Origin: Pseudomonas sp. B21_DOA
GTDB taxonomy: Bacteria > Pseudomonadota > Gammaproteobacteria > Pseudomonadales > Pseudomonadaceae
Reading direction: 5' to 3'
Assembly (NCBI GenBank): GCA_030544685.1
Contig: CP086683.1
Coordinates: 4,278,001-4,342,000 of the forward strand
Length of the DNA stretch: 64,000 bases
Part shown: in pieces, positions 29,155 to 34,833 of the stretch
How the letters are laid out: each line of letters begins with the position of its first letter
Numbering within the stretch: position 1 is the stretch's first letter
Program-made: the position numbers and the translations under genes
Notes under the pieces: model-generated
What the model was told of the DNA's origin: nothing
The model's input: only the letters and a program-made list of their open reading frames with translations
Database searches by the model: none

Positions 29155-29283
29155 GAGCTGCCGAAGGCTGCGATCTTTGATCTTCCCTCCCGCAACAAAC
29201 ACAAATCCCCTGTGGGAGCGAGCCTGCTCGCGAAGGCGCCAGCCCAAACAACAAATCAACCCGCTGGCGCCCCGCACATCACA
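29152..29283. repeat. REP-type elements after hxcV
   Basis: Two short elements: ggagctgccgaaggctgcga (from 29156), the same family as those at 55505-55590 and 62535-62605, and gtgggagcgagcctgctcgc (from 29212). They mark the boundary between the conserved hxc block and the accessory insertion. Confidence 0.75.
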
Positions 29284-29643
29284 TCACCCCGCCACCTCCA
29301 AATTATCCATAACCCGATTCACCGCCAGCTCCCCCAGCATGATCAGTTGAGCAACCCCCAACAACGCCCGACGCTGCGGTGCCGGCAACAGACTGGAAAT
29401 GTCCTGAGCAATCGTCTTCGCCGAAGCAAGCGTTTCACTCGCATCCGCCAGCAGTTCTTCATTCTTGGTATCCGCCGTCACCGCATACATCCCACGCGCC
29501 TTACGTGGCGGAGGCAGGAGATTGTTTGGAGACAGGTAATGATCGAGCGCGCGGTCAGCGGCTTCGTGGAGCTTGTTGGAATCGAGGGATTCGTAGGGAG
29601 ACGTGGGATCGGTTTCGGGTGGGTTGGGTGTTGGTTTGATCAT
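29284..29643 (-). CDS. DUF6124 family protein, copy 1
   Basis: 119 residues, intact: MIKPTPNPPETDPTSPYES at the start, then SNKLHEAADRALDHYL, ADTKNEELLADASETLASA and RRALLGVAQLIMLGELAVN. This is a small, all-helical family of unknown function that is multi-copy in fluorescent pseudomonads. The GGAG ribosome site is 7 bases upstream of ATG 29643, and the start is preceded by a long structured leader (29644-29990). A near-identical second copy lies at 32066-32424 with its own leader. No membrane segment or signal peptide is seen. Confidence 0.88.
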   Translation of the reverse strand: MIKPTPNPPETDPTSPYESLDSNKLHEAADRALDHYLSPNNLLPPPRKARGMYAVTADTKNEELLADASETLASAKTIAQDISSLLPAPQRRALLGVAQLIMLGELAVNRVMDNLEVAG

Positions 29644-29990
29644 GGTGAAGCTCCTTGATTATTGGAGCCGCCACGTTTCGCTGCGAAACGAAGAGAGGTG
29701 GCAGCTGTACGCAGGTTCGCAGACCGGGAATCAAGGAACCCGGCATACCCGAAGGTATCCCGCGCGCAGCCGCCATAAAGCATCACTGCCAAAAATGACA
29801 ACGAACTGGAGCGCTGTGCGCCTTGATTGATCCGGGCTGCGAAACCCGATCGCTGATTCGTCAGCGACGCGACCACAATAGAACCCGCCCCCTAGGCGCA
29901 CAAGCCGGCGGATTCTGGCGTAGCTGTAGGCAAAGGCGCAAGGATATGTAGCCTGGGAGCGTGACTGGAGATGTCTTTTTAAACATGGAC
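29644..29990 (-). ncRNA. Candidate structured leader of DUF6124 copy 1
   Basis: About 345 bases upstream of the DUF6124 start hold nested hairpins. CCTTGATT occurs at 29653-29660 and 29821-29828, and its exact complement AATCAAGG at 29729-29736. A second motif CTGCGAA occurs near 29681 and near 29838, with its complement TTCGCAG near 29716. Hairpins include ATACC-CGAA-GGTAT (29745-29758) and TCGCTGA-TTCG-TCAGCGA (29849-29867). TGTGCGCC 29815-29822 pairs with GGCGCACA 29895-29902. The distal 87 bases (29900-29986) are almost identical to copy 2 and probably hold the promoter. Whether the element acts as RNA or as DNA is not known. Confidence 0.6.
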
Positions 29991-30131
29991 GATCGTCGAA
30001 AAATTACTGCCCCGCCTACCTCCTGAAAAGATCCGTACCGTTACCCGAGAATTTTGCCCGCAAGAGCAAGTCGCGTAGGCTGCTGCTTTTGCACAAACAA
30101 TATGCACCCGCAAGGACGCACAGGACTGCCC

Positions 30132-31471
30132 ATGAACACGACACAAGACTGGCTGGCTCGGTTGGCACGCAAGCAAGGACAGCTCTCCCATTATGAAAAC
30201 TATCGGCGCAACGAGGCGCTGGAGATACTCGCTCACTTCAATAACACCGGTACATGGGCAGACGTGAGCAATCACTCCAACGGTTTCGTCCGGGAAGTCG
30301 CTGTGCGAGAACTGTGCAGGCAACCGTCCCCGAAGCATTAGCCGTGTTGATCGAACGTCTGAACGATTGGGTCCCTCAGGTTCGCGACTTGGCAGCGGAA
30401 GGCCTGAAGCACTACCTGTCACCAGATCACACCCAGGCATGGTTATCAGCACTGGAACCCTTGATGGCATTGGCAGCGCAACGCCGCGTCGACCACGCAC
30501 AGACATTGTCGGCGGTCCGAGCGATGCTGCAATCGGTGGAGTGCTGGGATGAGGTCTACGCCGACTTCTTGAATCGCCAGGGCAAAGCCGCGCGCTACCT
30601 GTTTACGCTGTTGCTTGAAGCCCCCGAGTCTCCCGAAACGCTCATACGAAGCGCGTTGGCTCATCGCGAGTTGACCGTACGGTTGATGGCCGTGTCGGCG
30701 AGCCTGACACTGCCGGCGACGCAGAGTCTGCCGTTGCTCCTTGATGCCATGTCTCACCCCGGTGCCAAAATCCGCGTACGCGTGCTTTATGCGCTGCTGC
30801 CGCTGCTCGCCGATCCGAAACCTGTACTGCGCGAAACTTTGTTGGATGTTTCACCGGCGGTCCGCAATCTCGCGCTTTGGGCTGCGGCTCGTAACGATGT
30901 TGTTGCTCATGCAGTGCTGACCGAGCGCTTACGTCAGCCTTTGCCCACATCAAAACAACATTGGCTGGGCGTGCTCGGGCTCGCCACAGAACTGGGTGTG
31001 GAGTTGCCACAGCGATGGCATACACCTGCGCTGCGCTCGAGCTATGTGACCGTGCGCCAAGCCGCAACACGCCTGCTTCGCGATGATCAACTGTCTGAGC
31101 TGTTCGAGGCGCTTGATGATCCTTCGGAGAAAGTGTTTGCGATGGTGATTGCGAAACTGGACAAAATACCGTGGTCCTTATCGAGCATCAGATTGACGGC
31201 CAAACTTGATCAAGACTGGCATGAGCTTACGTCGGAACGGCGCAGCGCCATTTTCCGACTGATACCGACGTGGCAACAACTCGGCTACTTACTGAAGCGC
31301 CTCGACACGGGGCACGCCGGTCAAACCTATTGGCTCGGCCAAATCGATGCGTGGTGTGACAGGCAGTATCTCGCTTTCGATCCGGTAACTCCCAAGAACG
31401 ATCGCGCCGCATGGCAAGAAAAGCTTCGTGAATTAAAGGCAAACGGGCAGATCCGCTCGGGTGCGTGGTAG
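30132..31471 (+). CDS. HEAT-repeat protein, one frameshift near 30320
   Basis: About 446 residues after restoring one base in 30319-30325, which joins …VREVAVRELCR to …TVPEALAVLIERLNDW. ATG 30132 (MNTTQDWLARLARKQG) is the best start; there is no signal peptide. The body is a series of about 30-residue helical pairs typical of HEAT/PBS-lyase repeats: NDWVPQVRDLAAEGLKHYL, LPLLLDAMSHPGAKIRVRVLYALLPL and YVTVRQAATRLLRDDQLSEL. Such solenoids are protein-protein scaffolds; no catalytic domain is visible. It is flanked by the two DUF6124 copies. Its base composition is like that of the chromosome, unlike the AT-rich island further right. Confidence 0.8.
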
Positions 31472-31513
31472 TCATGGCTGGTTTTGTCGAGCTACAAGTC
31501 AGCTGAAGGAACT

Positions 31514-31908
31514 GTGAAATCAAAGCTTCGATCCTTGTACTTATCGCACTGTATTGCATGGGTATCAGCACAGCGTTTGCCGATGACTCACAGACGCCAA
31601 GCGACATTCACGAGCCAGCAGGCATCGTCGTCGGTGAGCGTTTGGCTGCGGCCAAATCCAAGCTCGTCAAACAAGGATGGAAGCCAACACCGATGCACAC
31701 CACAGACGGTTATGAATACAGTGGCGTGGAGAAGGAGCTGGCTGCACGCAACTACTTCGAACTGGACACCTGCTCGTTTGATAGCTCGCGCTGCATCTTG
31801 TACTACTCGAAGAAAGGCGCTTGCCTGCGCGTCGATACCATCGGTGAGCAGTTCAACGACATGACGGTGACGCGATGGACCGGTGAATGTCCTGAAGCGA
31901 CTCAATAA
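31514..31908 (+). CDS. Small secreted protein of unknown function, one frameshift at the start
   Basis: Adding one A to AAA 31517-31519 lets GTG 31514 read (M)KIKASILVLIALYCMGISTAFA|DD, a clear signal peptide with AAGGA just upstream. The raw sequence otherwise offers only ATG 31558, which cuts the signal in half. The mature part is about 107 residues with three cysteines (TCSFDSSRCILYYSKKGAC) and a repeat-like start (VGERLAAAKSKLVKQGWKP). It is probably periplasmic. It follows the HEAT-repeat gene by about 40 bases on the same strand, so the two may be co-transcribed. I do not recognise the family. Confidence 0.7.
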
Positions 31909-31988
31909 CCACACGAAGACAACGTGGTGATAATCGACTGCTCCCACAGGTTCCAGGATCGTAGAAAACTTCTGCAATCAGCATAAAA

Positions 31989-32021
31989 CCCTGTGGGAGC
32001 GAGCTTGCTCGCGAAAGCGCC
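31989..32021. repeat. REP element
   Basis: gtgggagcgagcttgctcgc (from 31993) in the gap between the secreted protein and DUF6124 copy 2. Confidence 0.8.
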
Positions 32022-32065
32022 AGAATGAGCACCCGATCAATCACCAGGTGATCCGGACACCCGCA

Positions 32066-32424
32066 TCAACCCGGCAATTCCAAATTATCCAGCGCCCGAT
32101 TCACCGCCAGCTCCCCCAACATGATCAGTTGAGCAACCCCCAACAACGCCCGCCGCTGCGGCGCTGGCAGCAAACTGGAAATGTCCTGAGCAATCGTCTT
32201 CGCCGAAGCCAGCGTTTCACTCGCATCAGCCAGCAGTTCTTCATTCTTGGTATCCGCCGTCACCGCATACATCCCCGCGCCTTACGCGGCGGAGGCAGGA
32301 GATTGTTTGGCGACAGGTAATGATCAAGCGCGCGGTCAGCGGCTTCGTGGAGTTTGTTGGAATCGAGGGATTCGTAGGGAGAGGTGGGGTCGGTTTCGGG
32401 CGGGTTGGGTGTTGGTTTGATCAT
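32066..32424 (-). CDS. DUF6124 family protein, copy 2, one frameshift
   Basis: About 119 residues after adding one base to CCCC 32273-32276; the aligned copy 1 sequence shows exactly where a base is missing. Nearly identical to copy 1, differing mainly at the C-terminus (RALDNLELPG versus RVMDNLEVAG). ATG 32424 has the same GGAGCTTCACC ribosome-site context. Its leader (32425-32768) shares structure with that of copy 1 but not the sequence of the pairing motifs. It is the last feature before the AT-rich island. Confidence 0.85.
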
Positions 32425-32768
32425 GGTGAAGCTCCATTTTTATACCTGGTGAAACCACCAAGACTTGTCGCTAAACAAGTAAGGGTGGCAGCTGTGCGCG
32501 GGTTAGCGAACCGAGAGGTATAAGACCCGGCAGACCCGAAGGTCTCCCACGCACAGCCACCATAGCGTCATCGCAAACGCGACAAACTGGAGCGTCGTTG
32601 AACTTATACCTGGTCGGGTCGCTAAACCCGGTCGCTGGATTGCCAGCGACCCATAGACGATATAGACCAGGTACAAAGCCCACAAGCCGGCGGATTCTGG
32701 CGTAGCTGTAGGCAAAGGCGCAAGGATATGTAGCCTGGGACCGTGACTGGAGATGTCTTTCTAAACAA
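32425..32768 (-). ncRNA. Candidate structured leader of DUF6124 copy 2
   Basis: Same architecture as the copy 1 leader but with different pairing sequences. TTATACCT at 32440-32447 and 32604-32611 have the complement AGGTATAA at 32516-32523. The second motif TCGCTAA lies near 32468 and near 32620, with TTAGCGA near 32502. GACCAGGTA 32665-32673 pairs with TACCTGGTC 32607-32615. AGACC-CGAA-GGTCT (32532-32545) replaces the copy 1 hairpin with compensatory changes. Spacings match copy 1 (76 bases between the first two elements in both). The distal 87 bases, from about 32680, differ from copy 1 at only about three positions. Confidence 0.6.
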
Positions 32769-33100: not shown

Positions 33101-34833
33101 ATGGCCGATCAAGGAGTTGAAATCGCCCAAATATCATTTTTCCTCTCAAGAGAAGAAAGAAAAGTCGACTCTATACTCGACAAAAAAAAGATGTTTTAAA
33201 AAACTCATCTGCGCGAGAATTCAAGTTTTCGGTCAATGAAACAGATTGTCACTTCATTTATTTTGAGACAACGAGCGCAAAATCAAATCCGCCTTGGTTG
33301 AACTTCATCAATGAAAAACTTCCATCGGTAGAAGCACCTCTCTTCAGCTCGAAAGCCAAAAACCCAAATGGAATCTTATTTTTAACCGTCAACGAAAGGG
33401 TGTTTGCTGCGACCTTTGGCCGCAGTGCCGCAAGCTATCTAGATCGAAGTGCTTTCGAGCCGGATTTTGGAATAAAAACAGCTATGAACATGTGCGGCAA
33501 CGAAGAAATACGTCAGACAAAAACCGAGAGCCACGCAATTACCCCAACACATATCGACAGACAGGTAAACAAGCCGATTGACTCTTTCGCTTTCGGCCTT
33601 AGCGAAACGGAAGACCTTCGGTATATATCGGCTCACATGAAAGACCACAGCAATATAACTCTTCAAGGTCGCAACAACTTAACAATAAAAATTATTGGAC
33701 AAGATAAGCTGAATTGGCCGCTATTGATTGGCTATTGCGAAGATTTTTTAGTTGCCTATGCATGCAAGGATTACACCACGCTCTTCCCAAACTACAAGCA
33801 CTTTGACGAAGCGACGGAGTCAGAAAGCAAGATATTAGATGAGTATCTACTCACTCACCTTCGATTAAAGAACACAAGCAATGTTAGTCTAGGGATTCCC
33901 GAAGTACTAATTGATCCGGATTACGGATTCTCGTATTCAAGTAACAAACGGTCCGGCGATAGGACTTATGCGTACCTAGACATCCGCCAATTATTCGACC
34001 ATATGAAGGCTGAAAAAATAACATCCGCAGCATTGAAATCAAAGCATATTTATGCGTATTCCCATGAAGAAAACCAAGTGCTAGGCTACAAGAAATGGCC
34101 AATATACAACTGCCTATCTTTTGAACAAGCCTTAGGGGATAAATACTTTGTATTAAGCGACGGGAAATGGCTGGAAGTAGATAGCGACTTTTACACGGAA
34201 ATAATAAACTTCACTAAAGTCACACTCCACGAAGAAGCATGCGAAGATACTTATAGACATATCGATATCAGCGACGATATAAAAATGCAAAACAGAGAGA
34301 GCATCTTTAATAAAAAAATATGCGAAATACGCCCTTCGTGCGTTTTGTTTGACCAAGCGAAGCTCCAGATAGGATCCGGTCGCAAAGACAAAGAATTTTG
34401 TGACATTTTAGATCTCACCGATAATAATAAGATGAGAATTATTCATTGCAAACCATACAAAAATGCCTCTTCAACAAACTATTTGTTTTCACAAGCCCAA
34501 TTCTACTGCCAAGCTTTCATCAATGACCAAACTTTTCTCGACGAAATCAGGCGCCACACAAGTTTGTCTGTTAGTACACGAAAACTAGAATACCTGGAGT
34601 ACATTAAATCCAGTATTGCGGACATCCATGGCGAAGACTACATAGTGTGCCTGTGGCTCCTATGCGACCAGCGCTTACCGATGCCAGTTAAAACTGACAT
34701 ACCATTGATGGCTCAGTATGAATTAAAATTGATGCACGAACATTTGCGAAATGTGTGCAAATTTCACGATGTAATAATACGCTTTATCCCCGTTATTAAG
34801 AAAAATTATATAAAAGACATTTCCCGCTTATAA
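33101..34833 (+). CDS. DUF6119 / TIGR04141-family 'sporadically distributed' protein, one frameshift
   Basis: About 577 residues after adding one A to the run of eight at 33182-33189 (…LDKKKDVLKNSSAREFKF…). ATG 33101 has a ribosome site and promoter. Family-like features: N-terminal AQISFFLSREERKVDSIL, then FGRSAASYLDRSAFEPDFGIKTAMNM, the block RQVNKPIDSFAFGLSETEDLRY, and C-terminal DNNKMRIIHCKPYKNASSTNYLFSQ (split here at natural lengths in the protein), VCLWLLCDQ. The family is patchily distributed and often found in mobile or defence-type islands; its biochemical activity is not established to my knowledge. Very AT-rich codon use compared with neighbours indicates transfer. It converges on the ParA-SIR2 operon. 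Confidence 0.72.

What the first reader, a model, noticed from the sequence alone, without database searches (positions are those of the whole stretch)
29644..32768. Two DUF6124 leaders share structure but not pairing sequences (covariation, including loop-loop motifs)
In copy 1 a motif CCTTGATT occurs twice (29653, 29821) with one exact complement between (29729). In copy 2 the equivalent positions carry TTATACCT twice (32440, 32604) with complement AGGTATAA (32516). Spacing of the first pair is 76 bases in both. A second motif does the same: CTGCGAA twice and TTCGCAG once in copy 1; TCGCTAA twice and TTAGCGA once in copy 2. Thus each copy has a private two-part code whose middle element can pair with either flank. 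This looks like a mutually exclusive fold (a switch) or a recombination-type site, and is far beyond chance.
Basis: seen in the sequence. Interest (0 to 1): 0.85.

Follow-up and report, generated by a model that had tools for sequence, protein, structure and literature searches.

The report
Privately coded C4 antisense RNA switches
The two 'coded' leaders are copies of a phage immunity RNA (C4) that this Pseudomonas carries 22 times, each apparently silencing its own small gene of unknown function through a private pairing code, which would make them a natural set of insulated RNA switches.

Summary
On the minus strand each DUF6124 gene is preceded by a complete C4 antisense-RNA module: c4-a1b1 (RF03163), C4 (RF01695; 81.4 and 78.2 bits), then a2/b2 at or beside the ribosome-binding site. 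What my searches did not find in print is this expansion. The genome holds 22 C4 modules, a relative 47; C4 occurs in 110 of 119 sampled Pseudomonas but 18 of 274 sampled from the class, own genome included. Modules match their own targets (0 of 100,000 permutations), and all 22 and all 47 b' loops differ within a genome. Codes recur across species; leader similarity tracks the code, coding similarity hardly does; three genes for one identical protein carry three codes. Best reading: an autoregulatory C4 switch whose code insulates paralogs as P1/P7 heteroimmunity does. Closest precedent: 21 C4-like sRNAs in Acinetobacter baumannii (PMC5320573). No transcript was measured here.

The parts
29898..29903 (-). 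copy 1, -35 hexamer TTGTGC of the proposed promoter
   Evidence: TTGnnn-N17-TAnnnT at a fixed place before a1b1 in 42 of 64 modules; letters checked; the stricter consensus scan did not list it
29875..29880 (-). copy 1, -10 hexamer TATTGT
29829..29881 (-). copy 1, c4-a1b1 element; a1 loop at 29837-29843
   Evidence: RF03163, 55.8 bits, cut-off 46.7
29821..29828 (-). copy 1, b1 (first target of b')
   Evidence: exact complement of b'
29694..29780 (-). copy 1, C4 antisense RNA; b' loop 29729-29736, a' strand 29716-29722
   Evidence: RF01695, 81.4 bits; folds alone at -43.2 kcal/mol, z -4.58, with a' and b' unpaired
29681..29687 (-). copy 1, a2 (second target of a', hairpin loop)
29653..29660 (-). 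copy 1, b2 (second target of b'), overlapping the Shine-Dalgarno AAGGAG
29284..29643 (-). copy 1, DUF6124 gene, 119 aa
   Evidence: PF19619, 65.7 bits
32680..32685 (-). copy 2, -35 hexamer TTGTGG
   Evidence: not listed by the stricter scan
32657..32662 (-). copy 2, -10 hexamer TATCGT
32611..32663 (-). copy 2, c4-a1b1 element; a1 loop at 32619-32625
   Evidence: RF03163, 47.3 bits, cut-off 46.7
32604..32611 (-). copy 2, b1
32481..32567 (-). copy 2, C4 antisense RNA; b' loop 32516-32523, a' strand 32503-32509
   Evidence: RF01695, 78.2 bits; -46.4 kcal/mol, z -5.29
32468..32474 (-). copy 2, a2 (hairpin loop)
32440..32447 (-). copy 2, b2; lies 4 nt upstream of the GGAG core (32432-32435) rather than on it
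32066..32424 (-). copy 2, DUF6124 gene, reading frame broken in this assembly
   Evidence: two overlapping ORFs 32260-32424 and 32066-32272; PF19619

Best explanation
Each leader is a C4 antisense-RNA autoregulation module. A transcript starts at the foot of a1b1, runs through C4 and the a2/b2 region and into the DUF6124 gene. C4 folds into its three-helix scaffold and presents two loops: a' pairs with the hairpin loop a2, b' with b2 at or beside the Shine-Dalgarno sequence, which shuts off translation. The upstream a1/b1 copy carries the same two targets and would compete for C4, so C4 can bind either flank; shortage or saturation of C4 would switch the gene on. The sequence of a' plus b' is an address: modules with different addresses should not regulate each other, as P1 and P7 are heteroimmune through C4. 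Shown here by computation: family membership, layout, promoter-like positioning, own-target complementarity, address diversity within a genome and recurrence across species. Inferred: transcription, processing to a free RNA, trans action, repression, relief by a1b1. Purpose of the DUF6124 protein: not established; most likely a small helical protein-binding regulator, inherited from the antirepressor-type targets of C4.
For: Rfam hits above cut-off for C4 and c4-a1b1 in both copies. 18 of 22 C4s of this genome are followed within 600 nt on the same strand by DUF6124; three of the other four by DUF3077. 77 of 77 testable named DUF6124 loci have a C4 ending 49-61 nt before the ATG (loci chosen by similarity to one member; L170 not testable, contig ends). 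Own-target complementarity in 22, 47 and 76 modules, no permutation reaching it. b2 overlaps the SD core in 61 of 77. Promoter-like pair ending 6-7 nt before a1b1 in 41 of 64, spacing 17 (42 with any match; shuffles mean 2.6, max 9). Outside the genus C4 precedes an AntA antirepressor (L197). Published: C4 of P1/P7 blocks the ant ribosome site and sets heteroimmunity (PMC12197685, passages); A. baumannii C4-like RNAs are highly expressed and look RNase P-processed (PMC5320573); isrK and C4 form one transcriptional unit in B. cenocepacia (PMC4603805, passage).
Against: No transcript, processing or translation data for any of these loci. An early whole-region duplex test separated own from other pairs on average (0 of 20,000 permutations) but ranked the own target first in only 8 of 22 (upstream) and 7 of 22 (downstream). 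By summed exact matches, 4 of 22 C4s here and 10 of 47 in G061 have another module's target at least as good, and a' codes are reused (16 distinct of 22; 27 of 47). b1 is the weakest element (6 or more exact pairs in 49 of 76). b2 misses the SD core in 16 of 77 and in window copy 2. The minimum-energy fold of the whole leader shows C4 and hairpins but no a'/b' pairing (such loop pairings cannot be represented by that method). The general promoter scans did not list the proposed promoters.
Confidence: 0.85

Rival explanations
1. Purely cis-acting leader switch: the middle element pairs with either flank within one molecule and C4 is never released as a separate RNA; address diversity is then drift of a cis structure, not insulation.
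For: All partners lie in one short leader of the same transcript; isrK-type loci use alternative intramolecular structures (PMC4825925 passages); neutral divergence with pair-preserving changes would also give private codes.
Against: The C4 scaffold and its multiloop a' are conserved as an independent domain; C4-like RNAs elsewhere are processed out (PMC5320573). Codes of near-identical gene pairs are nearer to random than their scaffolds (9 pairs with gene identity 0.9 or more: scaffold 0.78, a' 0.62, b' 0.52, shuffled b' 0.40), although a code change must be repeated at three places.
Confidence: 0.25
2. C4 modules are prophage remnants or selfish phage-immunity pieces scattered in the chromosome with no host role; DUF6124 is a passenger.
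For: C4 is a phage immunity RNA; some Pseudomonas C4s precede a Bro-N protein (L065) and C4s outside the genus precede AntA and, by eye only, Bro-N- and KilA-N-like proteins.
Against: DUF6124 found in 1 phage record, at its extreme edge, and 0 plasmids. Modules occur in 110 of 119 Pseudomonas genomes, codes recur in up to 10 species, and one protein is kept identical in three modules with 17-28 silent differences: signs of selection.
Confidence: 0.12
3. A recombination-type or DNA-level site.
For: Inverted and direct short repeats; codes at some syntenic loci differ between genomes, so leaders do get exchanged.
Against: Elements match RNA covariance models, loops unpaired in RNA folds, SD overlap and promoter register; no recombinase partner was looked for or seen.
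Confidence: 0.02

Closest known systems
[quoted passage not shown]
   Same: Scaffold, a'/b' loops, a1/b1 before and a2/b2 after C4, target at the ribosome-binding site; different codes mean no cross-regulation (PMC12197685 and PMC5320573 passages).
   Different: Chromosomal, 22 to 47 copies in the two genomes counted fully, mostly before DUF6124/DUF3077 genes rather than icd-ant; in G061 all 47 b' loops differ, so b' carries more of the identity than a'.
Acinetobacter baumannii AB5075 Group 1 sRNAs (PMC5320573; abstract, section 16 and passages seen)
   Same: Many C4-like RNAs (21) in one genome with variable a'/b' loops.
   Different: There the RNAs were found by RNA-seq and, in the parts I read, no targets were identified; variability is said to be in a'. 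Here each C4 has its target in the adjacent gene.
IsrK / orf45 / anrP of Salmonella prophage Gifsy-1 (PMC4825925; passages seen)
   Same: Upstream small RNA element, middle helix and a ribosome-site partner with alternative structures; window a1b1 hits the isrK model (RF01394).
   Different: The isrK hits are below Rfam's cut-off (37.4 and 30.8 bits against 50), the passages do not name C4, and there the target is an antirepressor operon.

Membership tests
C4 antisense RNA (RF01695) | Covariance-model score over the curated cut-off | tested here: met
   81.4 and 78.2 bits against 45
C4 antisense RNA (RF01695) | a' and b' left unpaired in the scaffold | tested here: met
   10-nt hairpin loop and 7-nt multiloop strand in both copies
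C4 antisense RNA (RF01695) | Targets a1/b1 upstream (RF03163) complementary to a'/b' | tested here: met
   RF03163 over cut-off in both copies; in the genome 20 matches, 10 over cut-off
C4 antisense RNA (RF01695) | Targets a2/b2 downstream, b2 at the ribosome-binding site | tested here: met
   in copy 2 b2 is 4 nt upstream of the GGAG core; overlap in 61 of 77 named loci
C4 antisense RNA (RF01695) | Processed from a longer transcript by RNase P | not testable with these tools
   reported for P1/P7 and inferred for A. baumannii (PMC5320573)
C4 antisense RNA (RF01695) | Represses translation of the downstream gene | not testable with these tools
   no expression data
isrK (RF01394) | Covariance-model score over the curated cut-off | tested here: not met
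   37.4 and 30.8 bits against 50; filed as resemblance only
P1/P7 immI operon | Downstream icd-ant antirepressor genes | tested here: not met
   downstream gene is DUF6124 (PF19619)
DUF6124 (PF19619) | Pfam score over the curated cut-off | tested here: met
   65.7 bits (copy 1) and 67.2 bits (copy 2, frames joined) against 27

The most novel reading that the evidence does not exclude
Pseudomonas has turned a phage immunity RNA into a genus-wide system of mutually insulated addresses: dozens of chromosomal genes for very similar small proteins share promoter types and so a common input, while each keeps a private, evolutionarily stable antisense address that is excluded from use twice in one genome. 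Duplicates can be kept only if their code changes at three places at once, a chromosomal heteroimmunity; whole leaders are also exchanged between loci.
Probability: 0.5. Interest if true: 0.8.

Novelty: new variant of a known kind. Interest (0 to 1): 0.62.

Why it matters
If true, bacteria offer a ready-made, evolution-tested library of dozens of orthogonal antisense switches that coexist in one cell, and a natural test of how RNA specificity codes diverge without cross-talk. It would also give a regulation, and so a handle on function, for DUF6124 and DUF3077, families without known function that reach 43 copies of DUF6124 per genome, and show a phage immunity device domesticated on a genus-wide scale.

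Tried and rejected
Recombination site: rejected (see rivals). Riboswitch or plain attenuator: not pursued once both copies matched C4 over cut-off. Whole-region duplex energies: dropped as the main test because stem sequence common to all modules dominates them; own targets ranked first in only 8 and 7 of 22; replaced by loop-only matching. tRNA or other Rfam families in the window: 0 tRNA; only the four C4/c4-a1b1 hits over cut-off. DUF6124 and DUF3077 as one superfamily: profile comparison gave a 35-column match, probability 11, E 0.0026, so left open. Structure of DUF6124 (73 sequences): mean pLDDT 73, three helices, 61-83 and 88-114 confident; Foldseek against the PDB gave no match at E 0.001 or better among 211 listed at E 10 or better, so no function follows. 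Programmed or phase-variable frameshift in DUF6124: many of the genes in this assembly are broken in or near runs of C; G061 copies are mostly intact, and runs of six or more C or G are about 12-fold rarer in this genome's sampled DNA than in G061's (0.15-0.16 against 1.93 per 10 kb), so shortened homopolymers in the assembly are more likely. Gene conversion as the cause of identical proteins: the three identical proteins differ by 17-28 silent bases, so purifying selection explains them at least as well.
Full report
WHAT IS THERE. Rfam finds, on the minus strand and over the curated cut-offs, c4-a1b1 at 29829-29881 and 32611-32663 and C4 at 29694-29780 and 32481-32567. The order 5' to 3' is promoter, a1, b1, C4 (b' then a'), a2, b2, start codon of DUF6124. 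Folded alone, both C4s form the family's scaffold (-43.2 and -46.4 kcal/mol; z -4.58 and -5.29) with b' in a ten-base loop and a' in a seven-base multiloop strand; a1 and a2 are hairpin loops. In copy 1, b2 overlaps the Shine-Dalgarno; in copy 2 it lies 4 nt upstream of the GGAG core.

HOW MANY. The window's genome (one contig, 5.94 Mb) holds 22 C4 matches over cut-off, 22 DUF6124 genes and 20 c4-a1b1 matches, 10 of them over cut-off. 18 of 22 C4s are followed within 600 nt on the same strand by DUF6124; four DUF6124 genes are not so placed, one of them the second of a tandem pair. Three of the other four C4s are followed by DUF3077 (positions). A relative, G061, has 47 C4s. In a genus sample 110 of 119 genomes have C4, 109 over cut-off (at most 33 candidates scored per genome, 17 genomes at that ceiling); 95 of 119 have DUF6124, up to 43 copies. 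The two counts correlate (Spearman 0.886; no genome has DUF6124 without C4; 15 have C4 without DUF6124; kinship and genome size not corrected). In the class sample 18 of 274 genomes have C4, the window's genome included, the others with 1-6 copies (at most 15 candidates scored per genome); in the order sample 20 of 145, again including the window's genome, others 1-6. The 14 control genomes have none. DUF6124 was found in one phage record, at bases 61-405 of 22,689, and in no plasmid.

PRIVATE CODES. For each module I took the a' and b' loops and measured the longest exact complement in its own and in every other module's target windows. Own genome, 22 modules: a'-a2 7.27 against 4.10, b'-b2 7.09 against 4.22, a'-upstream 7.09 against 4.64, b'-upstream 6.18 against 4.48; 0 of 100,000 permutations reached any of these. 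G061, 47 modules: 7.04/3.94, 7.13/4.26, 7.19/4.79, 6.04/4.66; 0 of 20,000. One module per code, 76 codes: own a'-a2 match of 6 or more in 75 of 76 (15% of other pairs), b'-b2 in 61 of 76 (9%), a'-upstream 75 of 76 (18%), b'-upstream 49 of 76 (14%); no permutation of 10,000 reached the own means. Within each of the two fully listed genomes all b' loops differ (22 of 22, 47 of 47), while a' is reused (16 distinct of 22, 27 of 47). By summed a2+b2 matches the own target is strictly best for 18 of 22 and 37 of 47 C4s; one G061 module (L108) has lost its a2 target. So the address is mostly, not perfectly, unique on this crude measure. A whole-region energy test agreed on average only.

EVOLUTION OF THE CODE. 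78 named DUF6124 loci were fetched, the best of 510 stretches by similarity to one G061 protein; every one is Pseudomonas by its record title. 77 of 77 testable ones have C4 49-61 nt before the start codon. Over 146 modules (22 own, 47 G061, 77 named) there are 76 distinct codes; the commonest are shared by 9-10 genomes. Same-code pairs: 1 of 1390 within genomes (L118/L122), 252 of 9195 between. In the subfamily of 81 modules from 36 genomes: 1 of 84 within, 333 of 3156 between, Fisher p 0.0017. There, same-code pairs from different genomes have C4 scaffold identity 0.945, upstream 0.811 and coding 0.885; different-code pairs of one genome have 0.791, 0.642 and 0.908; different-code pairs of different genomes 0.793, 0.648 and 0.878. 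Leader and code travel together; the coding sequence hardly follows the code. In G061, L066, L075 and L101 encode the identical 119-aa protein with 17-28 silent differences under three codes. Nine G061 pairs with gene identity of 0.9 or more have b' identity 0.52 against 0.40 for shuffled loops and 0.78 for the scaffold. Eight of the 22 own codes occur exactly in G061. By flanks, some are at the same locus (both flanks: o13/L098; one flank: o5/L069, o15/L093, o20/L096; near-identical code with both flanks: o7/L067); three loci with both flanks matching carry different codes (o1/L068, o17/L107, o18/L100); and four exact codes (o2, o3, o10, o16) lie where the fetched flanks do not match. So codes are long-lived, and leaders are sometimes exchanged or replaced.

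CONTROL REGION. In 42 of 64 modules with a recognised a1b1 hairpin (69 examined) a TTGnnn-N16-18-TAnnnT/G pair is present, 41 of them with a spacer of 17 and ending 6 or 7 nt before the hairpin; single-base shuffles gave mean 2.6, maximum 9. Upstream, 34 of 69 modules share one element (around CAGAATCCGCCGG), 14 another (GGTTGTCCGTCGGA with AACCTT-AAGGTT), 21 neither by my patterns. The general scans did not list the two window promoters. A shared input with private feedback is an inference from this.

WHAT C4 CONTROLS ELSEWHERE. In G061: DUF6124, DUF3077 (L067, E 1.2e-28; L083, weak), Bro-N (L065, 8e-12) and small proteins without a family. Two Pseudomonas genomes (G008, G030), the first without DUF6124 matches and the second with two elsewhere-unassigned ones, have C4 before a 52-57 aa peptide. 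Outside the genus: an AntA antirepressor (E 1.7e-29), and by eye Bro-N- and KilA-N-like and small proteins, nearly all with own-code targets (five of the 27 loci were cut by contig ends and not read).

LITERATURE. Weinberg et al. 2010 list c4 antisense RNA and c4-a1b1 as motifs of Proteobacteria and phages (PMC2864571, passages). A review states that c4 RNA blocks the ant ribosome site and underlies P1/P7 heteroimmunity (PMC12197685, passages). PMC5320573 (abstract, section 16, passages) reports 21 C4-like sRNAs in A. baumannii, strong expression, RNase P-like processing, and cites a 4-nt difference as enough to separate P1 from P7. PMC4603805 (passage) has isrK and C4 in one transcriptional unit of B. 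cenocepacia. PMC4825925 (passages) shows the IsrK switch. P1 background: PMC8198154 (passages). Searches of the held open-access library for DUF6124 (0 papers), DUF3077 (1), 'C4 antisense RNA' (17), Pseudomonas with 'C4 antisense' (6), RF01695 (4), 'C4 RNA' with Pseudomonas and antirepressor (2) and Pseudomonas with paralog, antisense RNA and heteroimmunity (0) listed no paper whose title or shown abstract describes this Pseudomonas expansion; most of the listed papers were not opened, and subscription journals and supplements were not searchable.

VERDICT. The unusual part is a chromosomal repertoire of dozens of C4 switches with private, conserved codes over similar small genes. Insulation is the best reading of the code diversity but remains inference: old paralogs with diverging leaders could give much of the same pattern.

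Noticed in passing
window 30054-31471 and 33101-34833 (+), 32066-32424 (-): A HEAT-repeat-like gene, a DUF6119 gene and the second DUF6124 gene appear split in frame; C/G runs of six or more are rare in this genome's sampled DNA compared with G061, so shortened homopolymers in the assembly are likely (completeness 95.32 for a one-contig genome).
   Followed up: partly
L190 bases 901-2293 (genome G379, another family of the class): Four tandem C4 modules within 1.4 kb; three share the same b' loop and all four differ in a', each matching its own targets: there a' carries the identity.
   Followed up: partly
own genome C1:809023-809441 (+): A DUF6124 gene with an a1b1-like element (35.7 bits, below cut-off) but no C4 match: a decayed or C4-less module.
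   Followed up: no
N-terminus of DUF6124, residues 1-9: M-x-K-x-T-P-N-P-P is nearly invariant in 73 aligned proteins though predicted disordered; reason unknown.
   Followed up: no
P. putida PP_RS01475 (PMC9630843, passage): A DUF3077 gene annotated as a pseudogene gained a base in furfural-tolerant evolved strains: one of few hints to a phenotype for this group.
   Followed up: no
window about 29213-29240 and 31990-32020: Two similar GTGGGAGCGAGC-TGCTCGCGAA repeats just downstream of the two DUF6124 genes; they look like Pseudomonas REP elements (recalled, not tested).
   Followed up: no
own loci upstream of about -210 from C4: A GTTTAAA motif precedes most modules of both upstream types at a roughly constant distance; possible binding site or end of a neighbouring unit.
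   Followed up: no
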